DNA from: Ascochyta rabiei
Lineage: Eukaryota > Ascomycota > Dothideomycetes > Pleosporales > Didymellaceae
DNA length: 64,000 nucleotides
Direction: 5' to 3'
Assembly: GCF_004011695.2 (NCBI RefSeq)
Contig: NC_082411.1
Location: 558,001 to 622,000, forward strand
Shown piece by piece: positions 4,306 through 53,330 of this stretch; the first letter of the stretch is position 1; the number at the start of each line of letters is the position of its first letter. The notes under the pieces were generated by a model, which was not told where the DNA came from, made no database searches, and worked only from the letters and a program-made list of their open reading frames with translations. The position numbers and the translations under genes were made by a program.

Positions 4306-4387
4306 CGTAGGTAGTTTCTATATATTTTCTAAGTCTAGGTATCGTAACTACTTAACTAGATACCTTTGTTAATTGCTATTACCCTTA

Positions 4388-6233: not shown

Positions 6234-6235
6234 TA

Positions 6236-27235: not shown

Positions 27236-29070
27236 TATAGTAGGTAATTATTCTTCTACTAGTACCTCTCTTCTTTTAGGTTTTCTCTTTTATAGTACTC
27301 TTAGGCCTATATATCTAGAAGCTGCACACACTCTAAATTCTTAAGAAGCTTCTAACTAATCTTTATATAGAAGAGAATAAAGGCTAAGTAGCTATTAGTA
27401 TATTTACACTTAGCGCTATTCTAGATATTATTTATTACGTCTTTACTAATCTCTGTGTCTTCCTGTATAGATTAAACGTCTAATATTAATAGGTAGTTAA
27501 CTTTAGGGCTTATAACGTCTTAGAATAATCAAATTCTAATAGCCTGATTAACAATTATTCCCTAGTTAAATAGTTCTCTAGTACTAAAGTAACAGAGCTA
27601 AATTACGTTCCTCTAGACTGTTAGTGCTTATAAAATACATCTATTATACAGCATTACTTTTCTTTTTTATTAATACCTAACTTAAAGGCTATATAGTTTA
27701 GGTTAGTAGGTACTATAGACAACAGGTTACTTTAGTATTCTTATTTAATACTTTTAATAATATACTTAGGGGATTTATTACCTATTAGAAATAGCTTTAT
27801 ATTAGTCTATAGCCTTATTAGAGTAAGAGATAATCCTTCTAAGAAAACACTTAATTAGCCTGCAGTCCTTACGCTTGTTACTAGCTTAGTAAGTAACTAT
27901 AATCTTTATTATAATACTAAAAGGGCTAGTGTCTAAACTCTATTAAGAGTATACTCTAGCGACGCTTATATTAGTATAAGGAATTTCTTAGAGCTAAATA
28001 TTATAGTATTTAATATTACCTACTCCTAAGTATTTCTTATTTTAGTACGTAGGGTGTTCTAACACCTTTTAGGTTAAATATTAGTACTAGTAGTTAGGTC
28101 TTCTATACTGTAAGTGCTTATATCTACTATAAGTATGTTTTTAAAGTTAGGTCCCTAATTAGGTATATATTCTACTCTGCTGCCTTTAGCTTTAGTATAC
28201 CATTACCTAGTGCTTTTACCCCTACTATAAGTAGGTAGTTCTTATTATTTAGGTGCGTAATAAAGTTTATTATATCCTAATAGAGCATATTAAGGGCTTA
28301 GTAGACTATATTCTAGTTACTTAAGTTATAGAACTTATCCTTCTTCTTTTATAGTATAGATAGGCGTTAGTAAATTACTAAGTTAATAAACTTAGTAAGG
28401 TAGTTATATTAACTTAGTAGATATAGTATATAATTAAGTTAAGTATTATATACTCTATAGCAGACTATAAGCAGTATAGTTTTACTATATTTACTAGAAT
28501 ATTTTTACTATTCTTATTTTTATAGATATATTTTATAGCTTATACTATTTCTATTATCTTCCTCTAGTAGTAGTCTGTTACTAATTAGATTGCTAGGTAT
28601 TAACTATTAAAGTTGTTTATACCTCTGTATTATATAACTAGGTTTAGGGTTTACTAGATAATGTCTAATATTAGGTGTATTATAGCTACTAATTTATTAC
28701 ACTTAGTAACTACTATACTTATCTAGAGGTTAAGCCTTTCCTTCTATGCCTATAGCTCTTCTTACGTAATCTCTATTATAAACTAGCTAACTGTAGATCC
28801 CTATATATATAGTATTAGAACGTTAGTAACCTTAGTAATGTCTTTACTCTTAATAGCCTTTAAAGCTAATAACTACTACACAGCCCTCTCTTCTAGTTCT
28901 AGCTCTTTCTAAGTAATTGCCTATTACTGTAATTTTATAAACTTTATATATAGTTAAGTAGATATTAAGAAGTAATAACTTAATATTATAAGGAGGAGAA
29001 TTAGAAGTAATAGGGTTACTCTGTTTTAAGAGTGTCCTAGGCAGCTATAGGCCTACTTTTCTTCTACACT

Positions 29071-30035: not shown

Positions 30036-30620
30036 AAGAGCTTAGACCTCTTAAGCTTATATCTACCTCTACCTATTATTCTACACCTTTATAACCCTAC
30101 CGTCTACTCTAGTAGAAAACCTATTAATGTTTACCTCTTTACTTTAAACAATTTTTTAATACTACCCAGCAGTTTATTAGGCTATTGCTTAATAGTTTAT
30201 ATTTACCTAACTATGTTTAGTCTAGTATTTAGACATCTAAGCCTATTATAACTAATTTCTAAAGCCCTATTAGTTTAGAACTTTAAGAAAGAAGTATATA
30301 TAGGACCTAATCTATTTACTATAATAGCTAAGGGAAGTCTAGGTATTAGTTATTTATTTATCTAGTAAATCTTCTACTTATATGTTTATTCGCCTACGTT
30401 ATTAGAGGAGGGCAACCTAATAGCCTATTAGTAGCTGTTTAAGAACTAATAACCTTCTAGCCCTAGGCCTACTAATTAGTAGACCGTTTAGACTAGCCTA
30501 ACAACCTACTACCTTTTACTAAGTAATGTTACTCTTACTAACGTAATAGTAAATAACTTTTACTAGCTTTAGGTTCCTTTAGGTTAACGTATCTAAGCCT
30601 AATAGCTATAGAGAAGGTAG
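30036..30620. other. B 3' non-coding region left of G2
   Basis: About 585 bp with no reading I can support. It continues at 46635 once G2 and one copy of the GTAG duplication are removed. Confidence 0.5.
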
Positions 30621-30878
30621 TGTGCTAGTACATACAGTAACTTCCTTAGTAAGAACTAGAATACTTAGCTAGTGTACGTAATTTAGCCGGTAGAAGAGTA
30701 TAAGAGACCTTAACAGAAACTGTTAAGGTAGAACACCTATAATAATAACTAGAAACACTTACTTATAGAATTTAACTACTATATTACTAATCTCTTTAAC
30801 CCTTAATAATAATAATAATAATAAGTATCCTTTCTAATGTGCCTGCTAATAAGATGCTTTAATACTTATACTAGAATA
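30621..30878 (+). repeat. G2 5' LTR
   Basis: 258 bp starting TGTGCTAGTACATACAG. It contains an AAT microsatellite at about 30809-30831. It pairs with 46376-46630 and inversely with 19242-19496. Confidence 0.92.
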
Positions 30879-30881
30879 AAA

Positions 30882-30899
30882 TAGTAACCTAACTAGAGG
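30882..30899 (+). other. G2 primer-binding site (putative)
   Basis: TAGTAACCTAACTAGAGG starts 3 nt after the LTR; before RIP the first bases would be TGGTAACC, complementary to a tRNA 3' end of the type GGTTACCA. Element B has a similar TAGTAAC at the same distance from its 5' LTR (63516-63523, minus strand). Confidence 0.5.
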
Positions 30900-30930
30900 G
30901 CACAGTATAGTAGGCAATATTAAAATTCTA

Positions 30931-31145
30931 CTACTCTAAAGGCTAGGGTATAGTTTAGGAATTATTCTGTTAACTCTAGACTAGAACGTTATTATCTAAA
31001 TATCTGCTACTCTAAAGGCTAGGGCACGGCCTAGGAATTTTCCTAATAACTTTAGAGTAGGACGTTATTATCTAAATATCTGCTACTCTAAAGGGTAGGG
31101 CACAGCCTAGGAATTATCCCGTTAATTCTGGACTAGGACGTTACT
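30931..31145 (+). repeat. Three 76-bp tandem repeats in the G2 leader
   Basis: Copies start at 30931, 31007 and 31083 (the last incomplete), each beginning CTACTCTAAAGG and ending near TCTAAATATCTG. They lie between the primer site and gag. Tandem leader repeats in LTR elements often hold promoter or packaging signals; here the role is unknown. Confidence 0.9.
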
Positions 31146-31479
31146 ATTAGACCTATTATTTAGAAAACAAGAAAAACAAGTTTAAAACAAGGTAGGCATC
31201 TAGTTAACCTAGAAAAGCTTTAGCTAAGGGACTATCTTAGTTTAATTTCTAATACTTATTATATATATTATCTGCACAGTTCTACTTAGCCCTATTCCTT
31301 AGGATCTGCTTAGCTCTATTTCTTAGGACTTAGGATAAGAGGAACATAAAAGACAGGGACGAAGCTACTCTAATAGATAGAGTAATTAAGATTACTTTAA
31401 TTATAAGAAACTATTATCTACTTAATATAATAGACTACTAAGGATTAGTATACACTACTATAGATAACCCTTTAGACTC

Positions 31480-32600
31480 TATAGAGACACTATCTTCTCT
31501 AATAGAAAACAGCTATTAGGTTATTGTTCTAATAAAGGAAAGGTCTATCTAACTATCCTTTAATAGAAAGGAGTTTATAGAGTTTCTTAATAACTATAAC
31601 TATATAGTAGAAAACAGAGGGTTAAGTATTAAGTAGAAGGTTAGAGTTCTCTCTAACTACTACTATAATTACTATAGAAGGTTTATTAAACACCTAAAAC
31701 TATACGCTTTAGATAATTAGGTTAAGCTTTAGATTGCTATAAAGAATTACTAGAAAGACTAGGACACTGCTTAACGTATAGGTAATTAAGTGTTCCTTAA
31801 AGCCTATATTAAAGAAACCTCTTAAGCCTTTCTTAGACTATTATACTACTATACTAACTTTATAGTATATAGTAATATATATTAGAAGAATAATTAAATT
31901 CTAACCTTTAATAAAGGATACTACTTCTTCTTAGGACTGCTAAAGGTTAATAAAGACCTTATCCTCTTTAATATGTAAAACAGACTAGATATAAAGGATT
32001 AATCTTTGTTTATACTTAATAATATCTATAATTTTATAAAAAAGGTATATATGCAGCGCTAAGGCTTAAAGAAATTAGCGCTTAGAAGGGATAATAAATA
32101 TACTAAGGAAACCTAGCACCTTATAAACAGCACTAAGGAGCTAATTAACGCTAAGTCTATTATTACCTAGGCTAAGGATTAACTATCTAGTTAGGGTAGT
32201 AAGAGTAAAACACCCCTACCTCCTATTGTTAATAAAGACGTTAAAGAGCTTATCTAGGCAATAGGTAGATAGAAGCTATCTCTAGTAGAAGTTAGCATCC
32301 TTATAAACTCTAACAATTAGATAAGAGAGATCCTTTAGTCTCCTACTAATAACGCTTACTTTATTTCTTAAGTAACTAGAGCTAGTGCTACTTAGGAAAG
32401 GGACAATAGCTCTTATATTACTAACGCACCTAGAAACGTTAACCTAAAATAAGAAGTAAACTACTTCTAAGGAAGAGAGTATAGTAACTCTTATAATATA
32501 TATAGAGAGCTAAACTACTAAGCTTATAAGTATAAATTATATAGAGTACTTACCTATATATAGTAGTGTAGTTTTTAACTTAACTAAGATAGTTAACACA
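31480..32600 (+). pseudogene. G2 Gag
   Basis: Plus strand. It reads F-N-R-K-E-F-I-E-F-L-N-N-Y near 31558-31600, then V-E-N-R-G-L-S-I-K-[Q]-K-V-R, I-K-N-Y and a D-T-A-[Q]-R segment near 31765-31780. This is the order of the capsid domain of Ty3 Gag in the fungal group that includes element B. It is followed by a long Lys-rich region to about 32600. I could not place a zinc knuckle with confidence. It would form the virus-like particle; RIP stops make it inactive. Confidence 0.75.
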
Positions 32601-35600
32601 GATACTACTTTAGCCCTACTTACTATTAAATTAAACCTATCTAAGGATCTGTCCTACCTACTTTTTAACTTAATTAGTTAAAATAGAAGATTTAAGAGTA
32701 CTTTAAAGTTTTATAGGATGTTTTAGACTAGCTAGCCTCTATAGTTAAGCTAAATCTATTTAAAGGTGTAGACTCTAGGCCTAGAGGGGTAATATATAGA
32801 TCTAGGCTAGGCCTAAACATATAGAGAAAGATTATTAGAAGTGTTAGTACACTAACTATAATAGATAATTATAAGCTAGACTATAAGTTATTACACTCTT
32901 TTTAGAACTTCTAAATTCTAGACAATAACTTTTATAAAGTTTATAGTCTTAATTATATTAATAATAGAGATATTATACTAGAGGTATATAATATTAAAGA
33001 TAGCTCCTTCTTAAGTGTAGTAACTAGGTTAGATAAGGCACACAACCGCTAAGTTAATACTATTCTAGAAAGAGCTTAGAGAGCTATAGTTAGGAAAGAA
33101 AGACCTTTAATTTCTTAATAAGCTATAGTTAAGTAAGTATATAATAATACTAGAGATAAGTTAGTAGTAGATATTAAAGACTTATTAGGGTTAAGCCCTT
33201 TGCTAATAGAGAATAAGTAAATAATACCTTTTACTAGTTAACCTTATAGTTAGCTATATACTATTATTAAACTACTATTATAAGAGAGGGTATTAGAAAC
33301 TACTCTACTATTAACGTAGTAAAAGAGGAAGCATTTAATAATTAGCTTAGATAATAGGATAGCAGACCTACTTAAACTATCTAAAAACAAGATTCTAACT
33401 GCAATTCTTTATTAAGAAGTATAAGGGATTACTGTTAGAGATTTAGTCTTCTAGGGTTATATCTAAGTAATGTTCTAGAAGCTTATAAAGGAATTAGACT
33501 CTAACCTAATAGTTAGCAGGAGCGTTAACGTAGCAATCCTAGGGGCTAGAAGTTCTAACTAATTAGGAGTTAACAGGTCTTACTAGTTAACTACTAATTA
33601 GCTAGAGATTATAAGGGTCTGCACTAGCGCTAAGTTTAGCAAAAATTACCCTGCAATTAAGAATAGTAGAGCTTAATACTTTAATGTTAGATTAGAGAGG
33701 AATACTTATAGAAGCTACTAAGTAGAAGCATATAGTAATACTTAGAACAATAAAGATCCTCTAAATAAGCTAGCTAAAACTATATAAACTACTAGGTTAG
33801 AGAAGCTAGTATACTAAGATTTACTAATATACTAGGCTTATATTAGGTTATATACAGTTAGCTACTTAATTAACACTAGAGCTTAGATGTATTTAATAAG
33901 GTTTAGTACTTCTTAAGTGCTAGGAATAGTGTATAAAGATATAACACACCTAATAGAAAAAGAGTAGGGTGTTATTACAGCTAATAGTAGCATAGATCTA
34001 TTTATTAGAATGTTATAGAATGCTCTAGTCTAGATTAGAGAAGTTATAACCCTAACGCACTTTAGACTTATAAGAAACCTAATAAGATTAGTTATTCTTA
34101 GAACGCTATAGTGCTTATTAGTAAGACTAGCTATATAGTACAACATTTCTAGAAGAACTACGTACTATAATATATCTAATAACAGTAGAAGGAACGCTAC
34201 TTTTATTATATTAGACCTATTTCCTTACTACTTTACCCTAGTTAAGTATAACTAGGATAGGGGAAAAGTTAGAGGAACTCCTTAATTAGGCTAGGATGTT
34301 CTAATACTAGTAAAGACCTAATAACACTAAAGTTCTGTTACTTAGTAGAAGTAAACTACTACTTCCTACGTACAACTATAGATTTAGAAATCTTAAAAGG
34401 CCTAAGTAGTTTTATCTTTACATAGAATAATGCTAGTAGTCTCTAGTAGATCTCTAAGGGAGAGGACTCTAGGCAAGTATATGCGGATAAGGACTTCCTT
34501 ATCTTACTATCCTAAATAAACTTATAATTATTAAGGGTAAGAGGTTAGCATAACATAGTTAAAAACTAAGAAGTTAATATACTCTATAAACAAGTAGAGG
34601 TAAAGGTTTAACCTATTAATAATCTATAACCTAATAAACCTATAGAACTTAGTTAGAAAGACTAGAAAAGAGTTGTATATAAATAACAGTAGCTAATACT
34701 TAGTTTAAGCCTATATAATATTAGGCCTTTTAATTACTTATTTAAATAGTAATATACTCTATTCCTAAGAGGAAAAAGGCTTACTCCCTAGAGAATAAAA
34801 GATTAGAAGTTTAGCAATACTCTATTTCTAGCAGAGATAGTACTCTTTAAGGAAATAATTCTAAACAGAAAAGTAGCTATAGCTTTTACTTTTTCTAAAT
34901 CTAGCTAGATAAAGAAGGAGGTTTCTTCTCTATACTAAATTAGGATAATTCTATATAAAGCTTAGTAGGTTAAGACCTTCCCTATTGTAACAAGTCTAGA
35001 AGGAGAACTTATTAAGATGTTAAATAAAAGATTAGAATAAGGAATATTTAAGTAATGCAACAGCTAATATAGAAACCTATAGCATTTAGTGTCTAAGAAA
35101 GATAGTAGATTTTAGTTTATTAATAACGCTTAATATATAAATAGGGTCTCTGTTTAAGATATAGGAACTCTGCTAACTACAGATAAGTTCTCTAAGAGGT
35201 TTACTAGCTATAAGATTATATTATTTATAGACTTTTTCTCTAGTTATAACTAAATAATACTGTATAAAGATAGTAGAGACATAACAGTAGTTATAACGCT
35301 AATTAGCCTTTTATAATTATATACCCTAGTTTAAGAGGCTACTAACTTAGTAGCTGTCTTCTAAAGAATTATAATAAAGATTCTTAAGGATTACTAGCTA
35401 GATACACTTCTTTTTCTTAACAACATTACTAGTAGTAGTCTAAAGACAGATTATAATAGTAAGGAGGCTTTACCTAGTATTAGGTAATATATACTTAAGT
35501 ATATCTAGTAACTAGATAGAGTCCTTATAGACGTAGAAAGAGCTAGAGGTACAGTGTTAAGACTTAAATACTACTAGAGACATAATTAATTAGGGGTAGT

Positions 35601-38160
35601 TAGCTATAAAGTTATAGTAGAAGGCTAATATTTAGTATAAAAGAAAGTTAACAAAATAAGCAATTAGCTAGAGTGTTGGAACCTAAAGGAGGTCTAGATA
35701 TTTATAGGAATTGTAGTTTACTACTATATCTAGATACCCTTATTTACCTTAAAAGCAAAGCTACTATTCTAGTTATTAAAGAATAACGTAGTATAGTAAT
35801 AGGATAATATAGAATAGAGCTTAATGTTACTTCTAAAAGAGTATATTATCAATATACCTACGCTTATAATAATATCTTATAAAAATCCTAGTTTAGTATT
35901 TCTCTTAGTTAATATAAGTAATAAATGTGTAGGAGTATACTATAAATTAATAGGCCTAGATAGAAAACAATACCTATATAGATTTAAAAGCACTATCTAG
36001 TCTAAGGTAGAAAGTAGGTAGTACTTAATAAAGCTTAAATATATGGTAGTTATTTAGGCACTTAAGAAGTTTAGGATGTAGCTATATAGTATACACTTTA
36101 TTATTAAGACTAATACCTAAATATTAATTACCTAGCTAAATAGGTTGTTGTTAGACTTTCTAGGCTTAGTTATAAACAGGTAGCTTACTATAATTCTACT
36201 CTAGAACTTTAAAATACGCTATATACTAGGAAAGAAGAATATAGTTATAGATACACTATTAAGATACCTAAGGCTAGAGGGGTAGAAGAACTTAGATAAA
36301 CCTAAATCTAACATTAAAGAGTTTATTAAAAACCTAATAGTAAACGTGTTGTTAGGTAACTAGGTTACTATAAGGACTACCTAGATTCTAAGACAGGAAT
36401 ACTTCTAGAAATTAGAAGATATTGCTGTTTTTCTACACTTCCTAAAGACCCTAGTTAGGTTAAGTAGGAATAAGTGTAGGGCTTAGAAGAAGAGAGCTAA
36501 CGTACTCTACGGTCGAGCAGATTACACAATCGAGCGGATTACTTAAAACCCTACTAAAATTTTCCAAAACCACAACGCTTTATTTTAACAACTACGTAAT
36601 AAAATCTTTTTAAATTCTTAGAATAGTATTGTATAGCTACTAGTAAGTACATACCTAGGTTTTAGCTTTATAGCTATAATAGTTATAGAAATAGCCTGCA
36701 AATTGTGCTAAACACCCCTATAAAACAGTAATTACTTATTAACTTCTGTGTTATAGATTCTAGCACTCTAAAACTTTTAAATACTATTATTTATATTAGT
36801 GCAGCCCTGTTCTAAATATTGTAGAAGATTTTATTGCGTGGTTGTTAAGATAAAGGGTTGTAGTTTTAGGCAATTTTAGTAGAGTTTTAAGTAATCTGCT
36901 CGACCGTGTAATCTGCTCGACCGTAGAGTACGTTATAAACTTCTTTAAGAGAGATAGCTACTTATTATAATAAACATTAAGGAATATTGCTATTAGGCGT
37001 GTAGTTAATAATGTAGATATCTAAACTGTAGTTATATAGAATATCTACTAAACTATTAGTTATAGGGGTATAAACGCAGTATCCTCTATAGTCTCTTAAT
37101 AATACTACTAGCTTAATATATATAGAAGTATTAAGAGAAAATTCTCTACGTATAAGAAGTGCTAACTTAGAGTAACTAAGATTATAAAGGATATACTAAC
37201 TAGTACCTACTTCTATACACTATAGGAGTTAGTTACTATTAATATTATATACATGCTAATAATTAGAGGCTTCTAGTACCTAGTTACAGCTAGAAAATAC
37301 TTAAGTAGGTAGATAGAGGTAAGGGCGCTTTATAATAATAATTTATTAATAGTAGTAAAGTTCCTATATAAAGAAATCGTCTGTAGGTAGAGTACTATAA
37401 GAAGACTTATAGTTAATAGTAGACTTAACTTTACTAAAGTATTTAAGAGGCTTACTTTAATCTATAGGATTAAGAGGGTACAGGCATCTATATATAACCC
37501 TTAAGTAATAGAAAAGGTAGAGGGTAGATATAAACCTATTGTTAACGCACTTATAAAGCTTAAGGGGTCTTAGGTAGATAACCTCCTAATAGTGCTCTTA
37601 GCTAACAGAATCTCTATATAATCTATAGGATACTTAGCATATTAACTTATTACTAGCTAGAACCTAGTTCTTCTAATTAAACTATCACTACTAATATAGC
37701 AAACACTACTATTCTAGAAGGTTAAGAATAGAGCTAAACTACTTGCAATTAGAGCTATATAGTTAGATCTCTAGAATTAGTTCCTAAAAGATGTAGTTAG
37801 CATAACTAATCAACTAAGAGCGTTAAAAAAGGAATATTAGGATAATAACAACAAAGTTTAGTATAAGCAGATTAACCCTAGAGACCTAGTTCTACTGTAG
37901 GACTTAGTAGGATAAATTAACATGTCTAGAGATAAGAAGTTAAGAAAGAAGTAGCTTAGGCTATACTAAGTGTTATTTAACAGAATATAGCTAGATAGGG
38001 GTACCTATTTACTTAAAGACCTTAATAGAACTAGTATACTATATACAGTACTAGAGTAGATAATAAAGAAGTTCTATAAGCGTTTACTAGAGGATATTTA
38101 GTTAGAAGAGAAGGAACTTATAAAGGTATAGAGAGAAGATACCTAGAATTAAAACTATAA
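32600..38160 (+). pseudogene. G2 Pol: protease, RT, RNase H, integrase
   Basis: Plus strand. RT runs about 34870-35830, with F-L-N-N-I-T at 35413-35430 (catalytic D-D now N-N) followed by K-T-D-Y-N-S-K-E-A-L-P. RNase H is about 35890-36260, including K-L-K-Y-M-V-V-I-[Q]-A-L-K-K-F and L-G-K-K-N-I-V-I-D. Integrase is about 36940-38160, including L-V-T-A-R-K-Y-L-S-R-[W] near 37280, R-L-I-V-N-S-R near 37400, V-[Q]-A-S-I-Y-N-P near 37480 and the basic tail. The 434-bp MITE M1 lies between RNase H and integrase; removing it and one TA restores continuity. Protease should fall in 32600-33700 but its D-S-G is not clear. Confidence 0.88.
36500..36933 (+). mobile_element. M1: 434-bp TA-flanked MITE in G2 pol
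   Basis: Bounded by TA (36498-36499 and 36934-36935). Inverted termini ACGTACTCTACGG are followed by two tandem TCGAGCRGATTAC motifs at each end. There is no coding capacity. It has the same length and family as M2 (51887-52320), but with its middle in the opposite orientation. It retains more CpA and TpG than the host element. The terminal ACGTACYCTA is shared with transposon F, suggesting mobilisation by an F-like transposase. Confidence 0.93.
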
Positions 38161-38586
38161 GAATATGTTTCTGCAGAGCAGATAAGGTAAGGCTACTAAG
38201 AATTTAAGTACCCCTATTCTAGCAGGTAAGAGAAGAATACTAGCTAGTTATAATTTACTAAATATTAAAATCTACTCTTAACCTCTTATAGAGTATAAAA
38301 GACTATAATATAAAATATATAATAACTTATCTAATTTAGACTCTAATAATAAGAAATAGCAGTGTAGTCTATAGAACGGACTGCTAAAGATAGAGAGGTA
38401 GCGTTCCTAACTGCTAAAGCTACAAGCTAATTAGCAGCTCCTAGGTCTTACTAGTTAACCCCTAATTAGCTAAAACCTAACGCTAGTAAAAATAACTTAG
38501 CCTAGGTACTTACTAAGTATAGAGAAAGGTGTAAGCTAACACCTTATAACTAAAATAACTGTTTATAAATAATTAATAATTATAGC

Positions 38587-38651
38587 AAGTAAAAGTAAGT
38601 AAGTAAAACTATAAATAGTAAGTAAAAAATATAAATAGTAAGTAAAAGTAT
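38587..38651. repeat. Short AT-rich direct repeats in G2
   Basis: Units such as ATAAATAGTAAGTAAAA repeated two to three times between the end of pol and ORF3; also present in G1 at 29071-29141. Confidence 0.75.
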
Positions 38652-41600
38652 AGAAGAAAAGTAGGCCTACAGCTGCCTAGGACACTCTTAAAGCAGAGCT
38701 ACCCTGTTACTTCTAACTCTTCCTCTTATAATATTAGCTTATAACTTCTTTATATCTACTTAACTATATATAAAGTTTATAATATTATAGTAAAGAGTAA
38801 TTACATAGAAAGAGCTAGAACTAGAAGAGGGGGTAGTGTAGTAGTTATTAGTCTTAAAGGCTATTAAGAGTAAGGATATTACTAAGGTTACTAATATCCT
38901 AATACTATATATAGAGGGATCTACAGTTAGCTAGTTTATAATAGAGATTACGTAAGAAGAGCTATAGGTATATAGAAAAAGGCTTAACTTCTAGATAAGT
39001 ATAGTAGTTACTAAGTTTAACAAATTAGTAGCTATAATATACTTTATATTAGATATTATCTAGTAAACCCTAAACCTAGTTGCATAATATAGAGGTATAA
39101 GCAACTTTAATAGTTAATACCTAGTAATCTAATTAGTAATAGACTATAACTAGAGGAAGATAATAGAAATAGTATAAGCTATAAAATACATCTATAAAAA
39201 TAAGAATAGTAAAAATATTCTAGTAAACGTAGTAATACTATACTGCCTATATTTTGCTATAGAATATATAATACGTAACTTAATTATATACTATATCTAC
39301 TAAGTAGACGCTAACAACCTTATAAAGCTTATTAACTTAGTAATTTACTAACGCCTATCTATACTATAAAAGAGAAAGGATAAGTTCTATAACTTAAGTA
39401 ACTAGAAGACAGTCTACTAAGCCCTTAATATGCTCTAGTAGGATATAATAAGCTTTATTACACACCTAAATAATAAGAACTACCTACTAGTAGTAAAGGT
39501 AAAAGTACTAGGTAAAGGCGTACTAAAGCTAAAAGTAACAGAGTAGGACGTGTGCCTAACTAGGGACCTAACTTTAAAAATATAATAATAGTAGATATAA
39601 GCACTTACACTATAGAAGCCCTAACTACTAGCACTAATCTTTAGCCTAAAAGGTGTTAGGACACCCTACTTACTAAAAGAAACGATTACTTAGGAGTAGG
39701 CAGCATTAAATGCTATAATATTTACCTTTAAGAACTTTCTTATACTAATATAGGCAGCGCTAGAGTATATTCTTAACAGAGTTTAGATACTAGCCCCTTT
39801 AGCATTACTATCTAGGTTATAGTTACTTACTAAGCTAGTAATAAGTATAAGGACTATAGGCTAGTTAATTATTTCTCTAGAAGGATTATCTCTTACCCTA
39901 ATAAGGCTATAGACTAATACAGAGCTATTCCTAATAGGTAACAAATTCCCTAAGGATGTTATTAAAAGCATTAAATAAGATTACTAAAGAAACCTGTCGT
40001 CTACAACACCTAATAACCTTAACTAGATAGCCTTTAAGTTAGGTGTTAATAAAATAGGAAAGTAGCGCTGTATAATACATGTAATATATAAGCACTAACA
40101 GTCTAAAAAAGCTTAAGTTAGCTCTGTTACTTTAGTACTAGAGGACTATTAAACTAGGGAACAATTATTAATTAGGCTATTATAATTAAGGTTATTTTAA
40201 AACGTTATAAGCCTTAAAGTTAACTCTCTATTAATATTAGACGTTTAGTCTATACAGGAAGACGTAGAGATTAGTAAAGACGTAATAAATAATATCTAAG
40301 ATAGTGCTAAGTGCAAATACACTGTTAGTTAATCTACCTTTATTCTCCTCTACATAAAGATTAATTAGAAGCTCCTTAAGGATCTAGAGCGTGTAAAGCT
40401 CCTAGGTGCATAGGTCTAAGAGTGCTGTAAGGAAGAAGAAACTTAAAAGAAGAAAGGTGCTAGTAGAAGAATAATAACCTACTATACAGTAAACCTATTA
40501 TAAGTTTACTTTCCTTATTTCTAGTATAATGTAGGTAAACTTAGCTTACTAGTCTGCACTCTTAATACTACTATAATATCTAACCTGCTTATACTAATAT
40601 ATAAGAAAAAGACTAGCTAGAGGAAGTAAAGAAGTAACCTAAAAACTAGAATCCTGTTTTAAGAGCAGCTCTGTGTACTAAATATAATGGATAGTCTATA
40701 GTTCTATTAATTCTGCCTAGTTCCTATAGTATTTAACCTTAACTAGAATAACTTTATCTCTAGGAACCTATCTTAACATTTTTAAGCTAAGGCAGACAGT
40801 CTAAACTAGAAAGGTACTATTATAGTCTCTGTATTTACTTCTATATTTTAAAACAATCTAGAACTCTAGAAAATAGTAGATAAATACTTTAATATATATA
40901 ACTATTATACCTATATAAAGTATAGTAAAAGTAACCTAGAGTAGTATAGAATTATATACTACTTTATTATCTAATAGCTAGTAAGAGGTAATCTATAGTA
41001 CTAGCTTTACTATATAGTACTCTATTATTAAACTAACTTAATCTTCTACCTATACTACACTAAATATACTTAGTCTAGAGATTAGACGTTGTTTAAGTAC
41101 GTAGATTATAACCTCTATAATACTATAGAGTTAGATAGGGGAATAGATATAATATAGGGCTTAGTATCGTTTAATAATAAAGATAAAGATAACTACACTA
41201 TTACTCTAAAAGGCTTCTACAATTTAGTTATAGAATACTTAGCTTAGAGGAAAGATAATAGAATTAAATAATATAATAGTTATATTAAGGAGTAGGTAGA
41301 TATAGTTAACTACCCTAAGTTAGTATAAGACGTAGTAGGTGCTAAGGAGAAGAAGTATCCTTATAAGTATAGGGACGTTAAGATCTCCTACCTAGCACTA
41401 CTATATAGTTCTACTAGACTATTTATAATAAGACGCTAAACTATACTCTCTTAGTACGTACTAGTTATAGAGAATAGAGAGATAATAGAGATTCTAAAGA
41501 TAGGATTATATAAAGATATTACTAGTTCTTATTAGATACTTACGCTAGAACCTTTATTACTATTAGGTTATTTAATTAAGTATAGTAGTACTCCCTTTGC

Positions 41601-41828
41601 TTTCCTAGCAGACATAGCGCTAGCTTTCTTCTTCTAGATTTCTAAAGCTATCTATTACTAGACTTAGTATAACTCTTACCTAGTCTAGTAAGAGATACTC
41701 TGTATTTTTAGTCTTAATAATAAGAAGCTTATAAAGTTTCTTTAGAAGAGTAGAGATAATAACGTTGCTATAGTAAAGAGGCATTAGCAGTAGATAAAGA
41801 TATCTAAGAAAGATTGCTTTAGGGCTAA

Positions 41829-42024
41829 TGTTAGGATCCCTTTTAGGAGGGGTAGTACGTTATTAAGTACTTAAAGGTAGAGAGTGTAATTGCAGGTTAT
41901 AGATAGACGAATTACTTCTAAGTAATTAGAGTAATCTAGCTAGGTTATATAGATACGCTACCCCTACTCTATTTACTAGGCCTTTAGTCTTAGTATATAG
42001 CACTTAGAGACTAAAGACCTAATA
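41829..42024 (-). repeat. N2 3' LTR
   Basis: 196 bp, counterpart of 23848-24043. On the minus strand it is preceded by the purine run at 42027-42036. Confidence 0.9.
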
Positions 42025-42251
42025 ATATCCCCCTTCTAGGATTGTTCGTCCTAAGCAATTAGTATTATAGTTACCTAAACCTAGGCTAGTAATAATAGGC
42101 TACTATAGGCTATAAGACGTCCTAAGTACTAAGGAGAGGTTATCTAGTAATAGAGGTAATTCTCTTAAACCTGCTAGTAGTTGCGTTTACCCCTATCTTT
42201 ACCTTTACTCTTACCTTTACCTTTACCTTAAATTTTTATAGGTACCTAGAA

Positions 42252-43522
42252 AATAAGTAGGTCTATATACTGCTAGCTTCCTGCCTAGGTATACCTAATA
42301 TTACTACCTATTTTAGACTATTACTTCTATACTCTACTCTACTTTTTAGTAAGTTAGTACTTTTCTTTAGTATAGGCAGAATTTCCTTTACTAAACTAGA
42401 ATAACCTCTTATAGGTTATTATAGGTTAGTATAACTCTATAGGCAGCTAACTAGATCCTCTAGGCTCTAATAACTTTATAAGCATAATCCTTAACACTAA
42501 GCCTGCTACCTTACCTTTACACTATAGATCTAAACGTAGTTAGTAATAATTTTGCCTATAATAGCGTGTAGTTATTTTAGGTGTATACTTAGTATATCTA
42601 TAGCTTTACTATAGGCTAGTATAAGTAGTATAGCTAGGTTAGTTACGTTTATATCTAGGTTATACCTACTAATACTACTATATACTCTACCTAGGTTATA
42701 GAGATAGAATTAGGTAAGTCTAACTAGGTTATATACTATGTCTAGTACTTCTCTACTAACTAGAAGTGTATTATAGTATATATCCCCCTTCTATATAATT
42801 ATTACTTATTATAGGTTATACTGACTTTTAGTAGCTTTACCCTAAGAATAATATAGAGCTACCTAAGATTTAAAAAATTCTCTAGGAGTTAGAGTTTAGT
42901 ATCTAGGATTCTAACTAGGACATAGTTAATAGTAAGCCCTAGTAGCGCCTACTAACTATATTAGAGAAGAAGTTAGCTAAACTTAAGCTTATAGAGCTCT
43001 ATTAGCCTATTTCTAAGGATTATAGCTAGTAAGTTGTCTTTTTAAGTAGTCTTAGTCTATTATAGGTTATTCTAACACGTTTAGTAGTACGTATATTCCT
43101 TATACTTCTTACCTCTATCTATATAGTAGTGCTATTACTAAGAACAAGAACTCTTACTCTAATTTCTGCCTAGACTAGCGCTAGCGTACTAAGAAATTAG
43201 TCTTAGCCTATGCTAAGGCTAGTAAGTATAGTCTTAAGGTTACTATAGCTAATAGGGTTACTAAGAAGACTAATTCCCCTTATAAGTAGGTATATATACT
43301 AATTCTATTTCTAAATAGGCTATACTAACTTATTATAGGTTAAGGTTTATAATAATGTTACTAACTCTATTTCTAATTATAAGAAGAAGGGTAAGGCTAT
43401 AGTTATAGAGATAGCTATTCTAAAGGTAGAGAAGGATTCTGCTACTAGCTTAAAGAAGGGTGCTGTAATAAAGAAGATAAAGGTGCTCTAGAAGAAGCTA
43501 GACTACTATAATAGTACTTAAA
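42252..43522 (+). pseudogene. N2 antisense reading frame, unknown
   Basis: Inverted copy of 22350-23620. On the plus strand it reads L-P-K-I near 42860, then K-K-L-A-K-L-K, a Lys-rich segment near 43190-43270 and a terminal Lys/Glu coiled-coil-like part near 43380-43522. No family recognised. It is identical to the N1 copy wherever I compared them, so the second copy adds no independent evidence for the frame. Confidence 0.35.
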
Positions 43523-44151
43523 GGTAGTAAGAACACGTTATAATAGGCCCTAATAGGCTATTATAGCTTATATAATAACATAACCCTAAATAATTTCTAT
43601 AGTTAGATTTTCCTTAGAAATTCTAGATATACCTAAGCCTTAGGCTTAATTTAATAGAGTACTTACTTTTATATTCTATATTTCCCTCCTATAATATAAT
43701 AAGTTTTATACCCTTAGGTTAAGCTGTTTATAATTTATAATAGGCTCTTATAGTCTATAATAGGTAATAATAGATCCTAAGAGATGCTTATAAGCTTAGC
43801 TAAGTTAATTCTAGAGTATAATGCTATTAAACACCCTAAAACCCCTATAGGAAAACTAGTAAAGGTACGTTATCTCCTTAGAATACTCTTATTACCTTTA
43901 CTTCTTTCTCTTCTTCTTTAGAGGTTAACCTTAACCCCTATAGATCTTTTCTTTTAGATTCCTTTTTAGTATAATACCCTTAGATTTCTAAAATTATTAG
44001 AGGACGTTACTAGAAATATTTTATATAGGCTTCTAGGAGTTCTCTTCTTCTCTATAGCTAGTCTATCTAACTAGATATTCCTACTAATTATGTTCTTCTT
44101 TACGCCTATCTGGTATAGTATCTACTTTATAGATATTATTACTATATTTAC

Positions 44152-45222
44152 GCAGTATATCTACAATTAGGACCTCTAGGTGTAGAATAAGGCCCTATAG
44201 ATTTTAAGGCTCTAGTAATAATATATAGAAGACTAGATATACACTCTATAAGCCTAGAAAGTTAACTTTAAATACTATTAGACTATACTTGTCTACTATA
44301 CAACCTAGACCTAGGTACTTCTAGTTAAGCTTTTTCTTAGGCCTTATTAACCTAATATGCTAATTTAACACTATTACTTAATTACCTATTTTAAACGTAT
44401 ATACTAAGCGTTTCTTATCTACGTATAATTTCTAGTATTTATTTACAGTAATAATTTTTTTCTTACATTCTTGTTATAAAGTAATAACCTTACTAGCTAC
44501 TTATACCTCTAGAGGTAATTCCCTAACGCTATAAGGTATACTAGGCTAGTTAGAACTAATAGAATCTATGCTATAGTATACTCTAAACAGCGTAGTACCT
44601 ATAGTTCTATGTATAGATAGCCTATTATAGCCTCTATTAGCCTATTTTTATTTCTTTAGGGGTTTTTCTAATTCCTCTACCTCTTCTCTCTTGTTACTAG
44701 CCTTTTATAGCCACCTCTTTGCAGAAGTAGCCTTTAATTCCTTATCTAGGTTCTTTCTGCAGTAGATAACGTTTACATGTTCTTCTACTATTAGAAGGTT
44801 ACTACGTCTATTAACAGAGAGTAGAAATAGATCTCTCTAAATTTCTTTACGTAGAGACAAGATATACTCTATTACTTAGAGTTCTAGAGTTTAAGCTAAG
44901 CCTAGTTCTTTCTATAAGGGTTAAAGGGCATCTAGCAAATCTATAGGTAACTAATTTAGCTTCTATTAGATTCTCTTAAGAGTCTTATAGGCTTATTATT
45001 TTCCTTCTAACAGCGTTTCTAAGGTATTTAATATAACGGTTTTTAGTATTTCCTAGGTAGGTAGCTAGAATAGAGAACTAGTCTGTTCTGTTGTGTAATA
45101 GGATTTCTATAGAGTTTTAAGTAGCTTAGAAAGGTACATTATCCTAAAATCTACCTTCTAGCTCTCTTTTATAAAGTTAATTAGTAAGTATAGAAAATAT
45201 AATTCATAGTTACGTTCTTAGT
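44152..45222 (-). pseudogene. N2 Gag-like frame with integrase tail
   Basis: Inverted copy of the frame described for N1 (20650-21720): Gag-like protein followed by a Ty3 integrase C-terminal domain, with the protease, RT, RNase H and integrase core missing. It agrees with N1 base for base in the segments compared, RIP changes included. Confidence 0.6.
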
Positions 45223-45755
45223 AGTTATATTCTGCTCTTAACTTCTTATTATATCTTTGTAGTAGGTCTAGCTTTAGAAGGTTACCTAATAGGCCTAAGG
45301 ATGTTGTTATTAGGGTCCTAAGTAGAGTTAAGGTTAGAGGGAGTACTAAGGTGTCTCCTAACTTATAGTTAGCCCTTAGTTAACAGAGTTAATTAATCTT
45401 ACTTTGCCTCTAGGTTCTTTTTAACTAATTACAGGGGTCTACTAGTCCTTAGTCTGTTAGAGAACGTAGTGTAGCGTTCTAAACAATTATAGGTGTTTAT
45501 AGCCTAGAAGGAGTTAGTAACTATCCTCCTTATCTCTACTTATTTACTCTACCTTTAGCTAGACTAGAGTTCTCTGCAGCGTCTTCTTAAACAGAGGGAG
45601 TTTAGCTTTAGATGCAAGCAGTAGCAGAGTCTTCCTTAATAATAAATCTAGAGGGCACTAGTGTACCTAAGGGTTAACTGCTTTTAGACTAGCTTACTTA
45701 TTAGCTTTATTATCTAGTCTGCATTTTATCAACGTGTATTAGGGAGCGATTTAAA

Positions 45756-45951
45756 TGTTAGAATCCCTTTTAGAAGGGGTAGCACGTTATTAAGTTCTTA
45801 AAGGTAGAGAGTGTAATTACAGGTTATAGATAGACGAATTACCCCTAAGTAATTAGAGTAATCTAGCTAGGTTATATAGATACGCCACCCCTACTCTATT
45901 TACTAGTCGTTTAGTCTTAGTGCAGAGCACTTAGGAACTAGGAACCTAACA
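45756..45951 (-). repeat. N2 5' LTR
   Basis: 196 bp, counterpart of 19921-20116, identical by eye. Confidence 0.9.
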
Positions 45952-46375
45952 GCTAATAAAGAGTTAGGTATCCCTAATTAATCCTTCTCTACTAATAAAG
46001 AAGTAGTACTAGAATATAAGAAAGGATAGAAGTTATAGAACAGACAACATATATAAAGAAGTACTCTTAATAAGTTATTTAATAGTCTAACTATTAAATT
46101 AATAGAGGCTACTACCTAGATAATATATAAATTAGGTAGTACCTTAGATAAGAGTCTATTAAGACACATACTAGACTCTTCTACCCCTAAGCTATTAGAA
46201 GACTCTAGTTAATAACCTACTTAGAAAACTAGAGCCTTAACTAGATTGTAAAAACAGGGAGGTAGTATAGGAAAAGAACAAGCAGAGTAATAAAGAGGGT
46301 TAGTAATTAGTTTAGAGTTTAGTTTTAACTTAGTTTATTTACTTAATAGGGCTAAGCTCTTAAGGGAGGGAGGTT

Positions 46376-46630
46376 TATACTAGTATATACAGTAACTACC
46401 TTAGTAAGAACTAGAATACTTAGCTAGTATACGTAATCTAGCTAGTAGAAAGGTATAAGAGGCCTTAATAGAAACTATTAAGGCATAACACCTATAACAA
46501 CTACTAGAAACACTTACTTATAGAATTTAATTACTGTATTACCTATCTCTCTAACCTCTAATAATAATAATAATAAGTATCCTTCCTAATGTGCCTACTA
46601 ATAAGATACTTTAATACTTATACTAGAATA
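46376..46630 (+). repeat. G2 3' LTR
   Basis: 255 bp, preceded by the polypurine tract at 46361-46372 and followed by the GTAG duplication. It contains an AAT microsatellite at 46559-46577. It resembles the G1 LTR more than its own 5' LTR, as expected if this end was involved in gene conversion. Confidence 0.9.
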
Positions 46631-47207
46631 GTAGCAGCTAGAATCTATATAAGCAGCCCTAGATCTACTCCTTCTCTTTCTTATTATCTTTAGCTTCTAC
46701 TTAGTTTAATTTCCTAACTTCCTACTTCTTTAACCTTTAACAACCTATTAGGCTTTTAGGCCCTTATTTTAATCTCTTCTTTTATTATGTCTACCTTGTC
46801 TTTTAGATCTTAAGTTAAGTATAGCAGTAGTAGTAGTAGTAAGAAGCTTCTATCTAGAGGTTAAGGCTGTATAGATTCTAGTATTAGCCTAACTAAAGCT
46901 TATTATCTTTCTCTATAGGAATAAGCTTAGCTTATTTATAAGACTCTTATTCCTTTGTTTTTTAACCCTAATAGGTTATTAACAGTTCCTTCTAGTTCTT
47001 CCTTTTCTAAATAATAATATAGACAGTACCTTAGCGTATAATATTATAGAAGCTCTTATAACAGCTCTTATTAGTAGGGCTAATCTTTCTTCTTTTCTCT
47101 ATAATATTGCTGCTGCCTATACACGCATCTACTAGTTTAACACTCTACCTTCTAGGGAGAATTCCTATATTAATTCTAATGCTATTTACTATAACTAGGT
47201 GCCCTAC

Positions 47208-49289: not shown

Positions 49290-52200
49290 AGCCTTTTTAG
49301 TCCCCCCCTTTTTTAGACTTTAACCTTAACGTCTTATTACGCGGTCTAAGCCGTTACTATATTATTTTCTAGTATTATTTTAGCACTTCTTTAGAAAGAT
49401 TTATACTAATTTCCTAGAAGTTTTCTAATTTAGGGAATCTATCCTACTTAATAAGGTATTCCTACTGTCTGTTATCTAGTTACCTTCTATTAAGGACTTT
49501 TTCTATATTCTATACCTTCTCTTCTCCTTTAACTATAAGTTCTTGTATTTATTTCTATATAATTAGGAGTTAACTTCTTAGTATATATAGGTCTAGCAGT
49601 AATATATAGAATACTAGATAGATTTCTTTTATTTCTAGCAGGTCTACTCTGTATATACTAGAGCTAATCTAGGCTATAATAGTCCTAGGTTCTAGGTATT
49701 TCTAGTCTAGCTTCTTTTTTAGGCGTACTGTCCTAATATTCTTACTAGAGACTAGTACTTTATTGCCTACTTTAAAGGGTGCTAGTAGTCGTTTCTTATC
49801 TAAGTACCTCTTTTAATACTTATTTAACTTTTCTATATTTGCTTTGCAAGTAGCCTATAAGGTAATAACTCTAGCAGCTAATTTCTTTATAAGGGGAGAT
49901 TCTCTACCTTTTAATGCTAAAGTAGGCTAATCAAGGCTTCTTAAATCTATACTGTAACAGGTTTAGAAAGGTGTTATGTTTATTAATATGTAAATACTCT
50001 TATTATATATAAATTCTATAATTAATATCTATAGGGCCTAATTATCTTATTTTAGAGTATAATAGCAATATAAGTACTATTTAAGAGTCTAATTTTACCT
50101 TTCTATTTAGCTATCTGTCTAGAGATAATAGGCTAATGTTAAGACTTATCTTAAGTTTAAATAGTAGTTAACAGTTTCCTACGTCTTTAAGTTTATTAGT
50201 AGCCTCTAATCTAAGATAATTTATGCTAGCGCGCTGTATAAATAGATAATTTCTCTAATCTAGGTGTATGCTAGGTCTTTTCTATCCTAATTAGCGCTAG
50301 CTAGTATACAGTGTAATATTTTAGTTAATTTATACACTACTACTAGTATTAAGTTATATACTAGCCTAGCTACCTTACTAGAGAGTAGTTCTATAATAAA
50401 ATCTATTATTACGTCCTCCTATAGTTAACTTAGTACTAGTAAACGTTATAGTAACCTGTATAGTTTATATTAGACAGTAGTTAATCTCCTATATACTAAG
50501 CAGTTATAGTAGTAGTTAGATATATCTTTATTAATGCCCTTCTAGGTATATCTGCGCTAAATCTTCTCTAAGGTTCTTTATACTCTAAAGTGTTCTAATA
50601 TTAGATTATTATAACGTTCTTTAATAACTTATAATTTATCTTTTAGCCTTACAAGTAAGATACGCCTCTCCTTAGCTATATTATCTTTTTCTAGCTTATT
50701 TTATCCTATTTTAACATTGCTTAACTCTTTTTTAGTGCTAGAGAGTTTGTCTGTGTTATCTAAGTCTGTTATTAGCTCTATCTAACTGTTCTCTCTTAAT
50801 TCTTCTCTTTTAAGATCCCTTATGTCCTTTCTTTCTTTTATAGACAAATAAAGGGTTATAGCTACTACTAGAGGAGTATTAGGGTTTCTTTTAGTTAGGA
50901 TCTTCTAAAGTAGTTGTATAAAAGCCTTATTATACTTTTATAAGGGGTCTTACGCCTCTCTTATATAATTAGGACGCTGTAAGGGTCTATCTACAGAGTT
51001 TATAGACCCTAGGCAATAGGTAATTACAAAGTTAAACTTAGATAACACTAAGTATGCCCTTACTTACTAATAGCTAAGAACCTTTATCTCTATAAACTAT
51101 TTTAGGTTTTAGTAATCTATTAAGATCTTAAAGAAGGTACTGTCTAAGTATCTTTGCTAATGCTGTAGGCTCTAGATAATTATAAGAAGTTCCTAGTTAT
51201 AAGTATTATAGTTATACTCTGCTTAGATTAACTTCTTTAAATAGAAGTCTATAGGCCTCTATTAGGCTAGCTTCCCCTCCCTAGAGACTAGTTAACTAAG
51301 GATTCCTAAGATAGCGCCTCTAGAGGCATCTACTTCTATTCTAGTCTGTCTCCTAGGTATAAAATAATCTAAGATAGGTACGTTAATAAATAAATCCTTT
51401 ATATTCTAGAAAGCTTATAAGGATTCTTTACTTAGCTTAAGAGGCTAACTCTCCTTCTTTCTTATTGCTTAACTAGATTTAGCCGAATTCAGCCCTTTCT
51501 AGGTTAATTAGGTTAATAGTAAGGCTAATTTAGAAAACCCTGTAATAAATCTCTAATAGTAGTTTATAAAGCCTATAAATACTTAGATATTACAAACTAT
51601 GCGCAGAATTAGCTATTCTTAGATTGTTTTAACCCTATCTAGGTTAATACTTACCTCTTTAGGTAAGACTATATACCTAAAGTACTCTGTGCGTTAATAG
51701 TACTATTTATACTTATCTAAGCGCATATAGAGGTTTACTTTACAAAGCCTCTCTAAGACCTTCTTAACGTGTCTAATATAGTCTTCCTCTGTCTTAGAGT
51801 ATACTAATATGTTGTCTAGATATATAATATAAGTTATATTAACTAATCCTATTAGTACCTTGTTCATATAGGCCTAAAATTAGGTAACGTACTCTACGGT
51901 CGAGCAGATTACACGATCGAGCGGATTACTTAAAACCCTACCAAAATTGCCTAAAACCACAACCCTTTATCTCAACAACCACGCAATAAAATCTTCTAAA
52001 ATTTTTAGGACAGGGCTGCACTAATATAAATAAGAGTATTTAAAAGTCTTAGAGTGCTAGAATCTATAACACAGACGTTATTAAGCGATTACTGTTTTAT
52101 AGGGGTGTTTAGCACTATTTGTAGGCTATTTCTATAACTATTATAGCTATAAAGCTAAAATCTAGATATGTACTTACTAATAACTATACAATACTATTCT

Positions 52201-53330
52201 AAGATTTTAAGAAGATTTTATTACGTGGTTGTTGAAATAAAGGGTTGTAGTTTTGGACAATTTTGGTAGAGTTTTAAGTAATCCGCTCGATTGTGTAATC
52301 TGCTCGACTGTAGAGTACGTTAGAAGTATTTATAAGTCTAAATAGCATTACTATATACTTAAAATATCTATACCTAGTTTAAAAAGTAGTCTTCTACTTA
52401 TCCTCTTTCTTAATTTAGATATAGTAATATACCTTACGTATAATTAGTTTAGTATAGAACTTAGCTTACGCTAGTTGTTCTAGTAACTCTGTAATTAGTA
52501 GTAATAGATACTAGTTTTTAACTGTTATCTTATTTAGACCTCTATAGTCTACACATAGTTATAGGTTACTATCTTTCTTCTTTAAAAAGAGAATAGGCGC
52601 CTCTGCTAGCGACCTTAAGTGTTATATCTAGCTACGTTATAGATATTCTACTAGATACTTCCTAAGTATCTCTAATTCTGTTATAGATAGTCTGTATAAC
52701 AGTTAGTAGAGAGAAGTAGCTCCTTCTATAATATTAATTGCTAGGTTATACTCTCTATACTCTAGTAGGACCTAAGTATTATCCTCTAATCCTAAGTACG
52801 CATATTTGTAATACACTTCTAGAGTTAGGCTCTTTTTAGTAGATATTAGGTTATATATACCTACTAAGTTTACTATATATATATAAACGTCTACTAAGGG
52901 ACTTCTTATAGTACGTTTAAACTCTTTAGCATCTTCTAACCCTATTTTTTCTAGTTTAGAAGAGTCTTAATACTTCTTTCCTTAGAAGAGTATGCACTAG
53001 CTTAAATAGCTTAGCTTAGGGTTTATCTAGTTAATCTAGGGTAATCTAAGGTATATCTTATATCTTTATAGGTCTATAACTATAAAAGGTATCTATTAGA
53101 CCTTCTGTCTTCTATAGAAGTTAATAATAGATACTTCTACTATAGTTACTCTATAGATAGGCAATTCTGCTCTACCTACACCTTTAGCTACTATTTTATT
53201 TAATAGTGTAACCTCTAGATTCTACTTCTTTGCTAGAAGAACTAAAATTAAGTTTAGTTATAACCCTCTATCTATTAAGGCTTCTATGTTTTCTGTGTTA
53301 CCTATAGATACTTTAACTATAAGTAGGTAT
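49290..53330 (-). pseudogene. C2 Pol with chromodomain
   Basis: Minus strand. Protease has A-L-I-D-R-G-L-x-L-N-L-I near 53285-53250 (family A-L-I-D-S-G). RT has Y-L-D-N-I-L-V-Y-S at about 51797-51830, one Asp changed to Asn. RNase H is about 51000-51400 and integrase about 49560-50700. The chromodomain is near 49500-49400, with E-Y-L-I-K-[W]-D-R-F-P-K-L-E-N-F-[W]-E. M2 interrupts RT at 51887; in C1 the same site is empty (15195-15205). The chromodomain would tether integration to H3K9-methylated chromatin, which fits the nested, heterochromatin-like setting. Confidence 0.9.
51887..52320 (-). mobile_element. M2: 434-bp TA-flanked MITE in C2 RT
   Basis: Bounded by TA (51885-51886 and 52321-52322), with inverted termini ACGTACTCTACGG and tandem TCGAGCRGATTAC motifs. 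It is exactly as long as M1. It keeps many CpA and TpG dinucleotides (for example around 51945-51990 and 52230-52270), so it has been little affected by RIP. C1 shows the empty site. Confidence 0.95.

What the first reader, a model, noticed from the sequence alone, without database searches (positions are those of the whole stretch)
38740..46375. Large Ty3 element with an unrecognised ~1150-codon reading region between pol and the 3' LTR
G1 and G2 both hold about 3.5 kb of coding-like sequence downstream of integrase, in the position of env in retrovirus-like Ty3 elements, preceded by a conserved AT-rich repeat block. It belongs to no family I know and has no obvious env hallmarks. It may be a captured host gene, a new element-encoded protein, or an older insertion fixed in the family. 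This is my best candidate for something undescribed.
Basis: partly seen in the sequence, partly recalled or inferred. Interest (0 to 1): 0.75.

Follow-up and report, generated by a model that had tools for sequence, protein, structure and literature searches.

The report
Jumping gene carrying putative oxygenase gene
A large family of mutated jumping genes in a fungal genome carries, besides its usual copying machinery, one extra gene of about 1,140 codons that looks like an iron-dependent oxygenase; it might have helped the element resist silencing by its host, but that role is untested.

Summary
The outer Ty3-order LTR element (30621-46630; about 11.45 kb without insertions) has one sense reading frame of about 1,140 codons between pol and the 3' LTR. 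In the window a separate nested LTR element (41829-45951, GCTAA duplication) splits it; 6 of 6 other copies examined lack that insertion. The frame belongs to the family: 26 of 40 counted copies have integrase upstream at 405-447 bases. Every scored copy holds stops, but its frame bias matches pol in the same copies and shared transversions favour third positions (14/14/31). A profile of seven natural copies found three uninterrupted proteins elsewhere (E 2e-146 to 1e-98); the window's own copy matches one over 918 positions (355 bits). They share HxD...H...R and match Pfam PhyH just under its cut-off (best E 2.4e-4, 21.9 against 22 bits). No membrane segment was seen, so not env. Best reading: an element-borne PhyH-like 2OG-Fe(II) dioxygenase. 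Substrate and role, perhaps counter-silencing, are inferred. Predicted folds failed and the relatives' surroundings could not be seen. Search listings showed no described fungal LTR element of this kind.

The parts
30617..30620 (.). Target-site duplication GTAG, 5' copy of the outer element
   Evidence: Sequence read; repeated at 46631-46634. Four bases only, so weak by itself.
30621..30878 (+). 5' LTR of the outer element
   Evidence: 30625-30878 is 88.6% identical to 46380-46630; ends set by eye
30923..31147 (+). 76-nt tandem repeat, three copies, behind the 5' LTR
35833..36126 (+). RNase H remnant of pol
   Evidence: RT_RNaseH_2 E 0.0034 in the window; 3.4e-8 in the less mutated copy L047
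36495..36938 (.). Small inverted-repeat element inserted in pol of this copy
   Evidence: Self-inverted ends and a copy at 51882-52325; in 16 of the 18 other copies with a measured RT gap the stretch is 430-437 bases shorter, in two 454 and 472
37037..37175 (+). Integrase zinc-binding region, placed by position in L047
   Evidence: Integrase_H2C2 E 9.8e-4 in L047 residues 919-964, 19.6 bits against a cut-off of 25.5; coordinates carried over
38568..38652 (+). AT-rich repeat block between pol and the extra gene
38740..41828 (+). Extra gene, first part (start codon not identified)
   Evidence: homology to P0001 begins at about codon 102-103 of the L041 frame
41098..41106 (+). HxD motif position (reads YVD here)
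   Evidence: Aligned codons 773-775: H in 5 of 13 copies, Y (TAY) in 8; D in 12 of 13, N in 1
41404..41406 (+). Distal histidine position (reads Y here)
   Evidence: H in 4, Y in 8, R in 1 of 13 copies; position
41824..41828 (.). Target-site duplication GCTAA of the nested element, 5' copy
   Evidence: uninserted site in L009 and L034-L038
41829..45951 (-). Nested, internally deleted chromodomain LTR element; not part of the extra gene
   Evidence: LTRs about 41829-42024 and 45756-45951, 90.7% identical; weak Chromo at 43997-44131, E 0.024; two longer relatives, about 69% identical, carry RT, RNase H, integrase zinc domain and Chromo on this strand
45952..45956 (.). Target-site duplication GCTAA, 3' copy
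45952..46290 (+). Extra gene, last part with its stop codon at 46288-46290
   Evidence: the C-terminus ends GK..RAE in L041 as in P0001
46362..46375 (+). Polypurine tract before the 3' LTR
   Evidence: sequence read
46376..46630 (+). 3' LTR of the outer element
46631..46634 (.). Target-site duplication GTAG, 3' copy
   Evidence: sequence read

Best explanation
The outer element is a Ty3-order LTR retrotransposon whose family carries an extra sense gene of about 1,140 codons between pol and the 3' LTR. Shown: the frame is a regular part of the family, was protein-coding, and is homologous over about 900-1,030 positions to an uninterrupted protein elsewhere. Supported but not proven: its C-terminal third is a 2-oxoglutarate/Fe(II) dioxygenase domain of the phytanoyl-CoA dioxygenase (PhyH) type, with HxD, a distal H 102 residues on, and arginines 10 and 11 after it. 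Inferred: the enzyme served the element, most likely by oxidising a mark or base that host silencing places on the element's nucleic acid or chromatin. Every scored copy in this genome is now interrupted by stops of the RIP type.
For: Part of the family: 26 of 40 counted post-pol places have integrase upstream on the same strand at 405-447 bases, 19 have the RT region, 18 both (two shorter second pieces and one were left out; the lists are capped, so these are lower bounds). LTR pairs 11,430-11,476 bases apart enclose it on C13, C10, C20 and C8 (by hand, not exhaustive). Coding: over five shared copies 113 codon columns with a stop against 182 and 165 in the other sense frames; pol in the same copies 145 against 202 and 211; over 13 copies 158 against 217 and 198. 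Transversions present in at least two of 13 copies: 14, 14, 31 by codon position, p 0.007. Homology: P0001 (E 2.2e-146), P0002, P0003 by profile. Pairwise against P0001: the window's copy 29.8% over 918 positions, 355 bits; L036 36% over 1,034, 596 bits (its E-values are for a three-protein database). The window's copy was not in the profile. Domain: PhyH is the best Pfam match of all three proteins; with the domain alone P0001 21.9, P0003 19.4, P0002 13.7 bits, E 2.4e-4, 0.0014, 0.078. H671, D673, H773, R783 and R784 of P0001 are identical in the three. In the element copies every change at the first H is to TAY, the RIP direction.
Against: PhyH stays under the cut-off of 22 bits in all three. 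Two AlphaFold2 models had mean pLDDT 37.5 and 36.2 and were not used. No solved dioxygenase matches by sequence; the best structure match, a Clp protease at E 0.0046 to another part, I take as chance. NCBIfam gives nothing credible. The copies scanned do not match PhyH themselves. In the element copies the second H is kept in 4 of 13; the arginine at +10 is R in 7 of 13; at +11 there is a stop in 12 of 13 and R in 1. One antisense frame is as sparse in stops (112 against 113 in five copies, 153 against 158 in 13), though pol shows the same (124 against 145); 37 codons hold a stop in all copies. The third-position bias weakens with stricter counting (3, 5, 10, p 0.11), pol had too few such sites to serve as control (2, 1, 2), and G1 against G2 gives 17, 15, 25, in the same direction but weak. 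If the gene protected against RIP, it failed here.
Confidence: 0.7

Rival explanations
1. A new element-encoded protein whose C-terminal part only resembles a dioxygenase: the triad residues are structural or chance, and the protein acts otherwise, for example as a nucleic-acid-binding or assembly factor.
For: Sub-threshold PhyH score; no usable fold; no Pfam match of note in the rest of the protein.
Against: Three proteins, two of them only 37% identical, share the triad at catalytic-like spacing and the same best family.
Confidence: 0.2
2. A host gene captured by the retrotransposon long ago, carried as cargo with no benefit to the element.
For: PhyH-family genes exist in this genome without stops (four of five matches). 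Other LTR elements carry acquired genes (PMC2864245 section 5 read; PMC9289625 abstract and passages read).
Against: Kept at near full length in dozens of copies and, by the third-position bias, probably under amino-acid constraint while active. No uninterrupted homologue found in this genome: all 45 scored matches to P0001 hold stops.
Confidence: 0.15
3. An env-like membrane protein that makes the element retrovirus-like.
For: Position between pol and 3' LTR; two RxKR-like sites in P0003.
Against: No 19-residue window above 1.6 on the Kyte-Doolittle scale in P0001 to P0003; no Pfam env match. The true N-terminus of the element's gene is not known.
Confidence: 0.02
4. The reading region is itself a separate transposon nested in the outer element and fixed there.
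For: The given interval does contain a nested element.
Against: That element is 41829-45951; in 6 of 6 other copies examined the extra gene runs on unbroken across its site. Self-comparison shows no other flanking repeat around 38740-46375.
Confidence: 0.03

Closest known systems
Phalaenopsis Ty3/gypsy elements with an AlkB-type 2-ODD gene (PMC9289625; abstract and passages seen)
   Same: Ty3/gypsy element with an additional open reading frame holding a 2OG-Fe(II) dioxygenase domain.
   Different: Plant, about 25 kb, AlkB-type with m6A RNA demethylation shown in vitro; here fungal, about 11.45 kb, PhyH-like, no activity known. No AlkB match to the proteins here.
Fungal DNA transposons with TET/JBP dioxygenase (PMC12730594; passages seen)
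   Same: Fungal mobile elements carrying a dioxygenase; the author suggests it counteracts C-to-T hypermutation.
   Different: Those are DNA transposons and Helitrons; [quoted passage not shown] The domain here matches PhyH, not TET/JBP.
Fungal gypsy elements with an additional ORF of unknown function or a dUTPase (PMC2864245; section 5 read)
   Same: Fungal Ty3/gypsy elements with coding additions.
   Different: No dioxygenase is described in that section; its additional ORF could not be compared because no sequence was at hand.
Plant LTR elements with additional ORFs between pol and 3' LTR (PMC7264820; passages seen)
   Same: A sense ORF between pol and the 3' LTR present in many copies of a family.
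   Different: Plant; the sense ORFs described in those passages are ENV-like.
PhyH family, PF05721
   Same: Best family match; in P0001 it covers model positions 87-212 of 213, with the triad.
   Different: Below the curated cut-off, about 600 residues of other sequence in front, and here borne by a mobile element.

Membership tests
Ty3/gypsy LTR retrotransposon (outer element) | Two LTRs with target-site duplication and polypurine tract | tested here: met
   30621-30878 and 46376-46630, GTAG on both sides, purine run before 46376
Ty3/gypsy LTR retrotransposon (outer element) | RNase H followed by integrase, in that order | tested here: met
   One copy scanned, L047: RNase H residues 656-760 above cut-off, integrase zinc domain 919-964 below cut-off, E 9.8e-4
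Ty3/gypsy LTR retrotransposon (outer element) | Reverse transcriptase domain | tested here: inconclusive
   No RVT match in the window or in L047; the copies are heavily mutated
Ty3/gypsy LTR retrotransposon (outer element) | Placement by an RT tree | not tested
   No tree was built
2OG-Fe(II) dioxygenase, PhyH type (extra gene) | Profile match at or above the curated cut-off | tested here: not met
   P0001 21.9, P0003 19.4, P0002 13.7 bits against 22; whole proteins 18.5, 15.7, 15.4
2OG-Fe(II) dioxygenase, PhyH type (extra gene) | HxD...H iron triad and an arginine about 10 residues on | tested here: met
   3 of 3 homologues. In 13 element copies: first H 5, Y 8; D 12, N 1; second H 4, Y 8, R 1; +10 R in 7; +11 a stop in 12, R in 1. 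That these residues define the family is recalled knowledge
2OG-Fe(II) dioxygenase, PhyH type (extra gene) | Double-stranded beta-helix fold | tested here: inconclusive
   Models of mean pLDDT 37.5 and 36.2
2OG-Fe(II) dioxygenase, PhyH type (extra gene) | 2OG-dependent oxidation | not testable with these tools
   Needs a bench assay
Retroviral or errantivirus-like env | Signal peptide and transmembrane segment | tested here: not met
   on the homologues P0001 to P0003; the element gene's own start is unknown
TET/JBP or AlkB dioxygenase | Match to the family's Pfam model | tested here: not met
   Only PhyH and one chance ribosomal match at E up to 10

The most novel reading that the evidence does not exclude
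A lineage of fungal Ty3 retrotransposons encodes its own PhyH-like dioxygenase as a counter-silencing enzyme that removes or alters a host-placed mark on element DNA, RNA or chromatin, in fungi whose genome defence includes RIP.
Probability: 0.22. Interest if true: 0.85.

Novelty: new variant of a known kind. Interest (0 to 1): 0.62.

Why it matters
Dioxygenases on mobile elements are known from a plant Ty3 lineage (AlkB; PMC9289625, abstract and passages seen) and from fungal DNA transposons (TET/JBP; [quoted passage not shown] A fungal LTR family with a different dioxygenase type, present in dozens of copies, would give the question of counter-silencing by retrotransposons a concrete protein family to test, and the uninterrupted homologues make it testable without touching the mutated element.

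Tried and rejected
Rejected: that the nested element explains the reading region (it only splits it). Led nowhere: Pfam on mutated copies of the gene (a DUF6908 match of E 0.18 did not recur there); protein searches with single copies L034 and L041 (nothing at E up to 1); IMG/VR and prokaryote contigs; phages; both fold predictions; solved structures (matches I take as chance, the best a Clp protease at E 0.0046). My first frame tests used L034 as reference and were blurred by its indels; they were redone on L041. The resemblance to a dioxygenase was first noticed by eye from recalled fungal proteins, then tested.
Full report
What is there. The window lies in a 40.9-Mb genome of unnamed origin and is AT-rich with RIP-like dinucleotide bias (TA/AT 2.04, (CA+TG)/(AC+GT) 0.27). 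That the genome is fungal is inferred from this signature, not read from a name. The outer element runs from a 5' LTR at 30621-30878 to a 3' LTR at 46376-46630. A less mutated copy, L047, shows RNase H before the integrase zinc domain, the Ty3 order; the integrase match is below its cut-off. Reverse transcriptase was not recognised by profile and no tree was made, so 'Ty3' rests on order and structure.

The nested element. In L009 and L034-L038, 6 of 6 other copies examined, the outer element runs on without it. Two relatives of the nested element, about 69% identical to it, keep reverse transcriptase, RNase H, integrase zinc domain and chromodomain on the minus strand; the window's copy keeps a weak chromodomain (E 0.024). 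A closer relative on C20 is about 7.3 kb where the window's copy is 4.1 kb (arithmetic), so about 3.2 kb is missing, by its position mostly pol. It is not the extra gene.

G1 and G2. They are 88% identical over 38740-40484, as expected of separate copies, but without any difference from 41293 to 46596 (55 differences in the 6,149 bases from 40485 on). A recent conversion or duplication of that stretch is the simplest reading, and it explains why both hold the nested element at one site.

The extra gene belongs to the family. The region 39000-41800 gave 42 matches from 40 scored of 87 candidates. Of the 40 places counted (two shorter second pieces left out), 26 have integrase upstream on the same strand at 405-447 bases, 19 the RT region, 18 both; the integrase and RT lists were themselves capped at 40 of 95 and 40 of 71 candidates, so these are lower bounds. 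Four LTR pairs, on C13, C10, C20 and C8, lie 11,430 to 11,476 bases apart and enclose the gene (by hand).

It was coding. In L041 the frame has 84 stops against 137 and 137 in the other sense frames, in L036 87 against 143 and 149. Over five shared copies 113 codon columns hold a stop against 182 and 165, while pol in those copies has 145 against 202 and 211; over 13 copies the gene has 158 against 217 and 198, and 37 codons hold a stop in all. An antisense frame is as sparse (112 in five, 153 in 13), and pol shows the same (124), so this alone would not decide the strand. Transversions, which RIP does not make, shared by at least two of 13 copies fall 14, 14, 31 on the three codon positions (p 0.007); with at least three copies 3, 5, 10 (p 0.11); in the five shared copies 0, 4, 7 (p 0.03). 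Pol gave only 2, 1, 2 and is no useful control. G1 against G2 gives 17, 15, 25. Homology settles strand and frame.

Homology. Searches with single mutated copies found nothing. A profile of seven natural copies found P0001 (1,024 residues, E 2.2e-146), P0002 (477, E 5.7e-99) and P0003 (1,095, E 9.6e-99) among 7,997 candidates scored. P0002 nearly fills its contig of 1,589 bases and may be a fragment. L036 matches P0001 at 36% over 1,034 positions (596 bits), the window's own copy, which was not in the profile, at 29.8% over 918 (355 bits). The C-terminal ending agrees, which fixes the stop at 46288-46290. All 45 scored matches to P0001 in this genome hold stops (45 of 106 candidates scored), as do all 81 matches to the C-terminal piece.

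What it may be. PhyH is the best Pfam match of all three proteins (P0001 E 0.0027, P0002 0.022, P0003 0.019). The domain alone gives P0001 21.9, P0003 19.4 and P0002 13.7 bits against a cut-off of 22. H671, D673, H773 and R783/R784 of P0001 are identical in the three. In 13 element copies the first position is H in 5 and Y in 8, D in 12 with one N, the second H in 4, Y in 8, R in 1; the next arginines are R in 7 of 13 at +10 and, at +11, a stop in 12 with R in 1. H to Y is the expected RIP change; the stop at +11 is not explained by one RIP step. The first 600 or so residues match no family. Structure prediction failed, probably for want of sequences, and no solved dioxygenase matched. So a dioxygenase is likely, not shown.

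How it most likely works. The gene lies in the sense direction behind pol and the AT-rich block, so it may be read from a separate or spliced transcript; this was not tested. A 2OG-Fe(II) enzyme kept by a retrotransposon most plausibly acts on a mark set by the host on the element's nucleic acid or chromatin. The models are an AlkB gene of orchid Ty3 elements, active in vitro (PMC9289625, abstract and passages seen), and TET/JBP of fungal DNA transposons, for which an effect against C-to-T hypermutation is proposed (PMC12730594, passages seen). The ruin of every scored copy here shows that any protection was not lasting. A cargo gene without benefit, or a non-enzymatic role, remains possible.

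Novelty. The listings of eight literature searches showed, by title and start of abstract, no fungal LTR retrotransposon with a dioxygenase gene; the library lacks most subscription journals and no repeat database was at hand, so this is not proof of absence. The Leptosphaeria element Rolly came to mind by recall as a possible relative; the only passage seen gives no sequence or size, so this was not tested.

Noticed in passing
41829-45951: Internally deleted chromodomain LTR element; the two retained parts overlap at 44602-44615 when matched to other copies, which would fit a template switch at a short repeat.
   Followed up: partly
19239-25387 and 40485-46633: Inverted arms of two element copies with a core free of differences over 41293-46596 in RIP-mutated DNA: a likely recent conversion or duplication tract.
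   Followed up: partly
4386-6237 and about 25384-27237: A 1.85-kb element with ~100-base terminal inverted repeats in two copies, 89% identical.
   Followed up: no
36495-36938 and 51882-52325: A ~440-base inverted-repeat element in two copies, 93% identical in inverted orientation; further matches in L019 and L022.
   Followed up: no
L009:2691-5474: The nested element's family inserted beside another copy of the outer element, at the position of window 39207: an independent insertion.
   Followed up: partly
42050-44650: Dispersed short motif around TATAATAGGC in the post-pol part of the nested element; meaning unknown.
   Followed up: no
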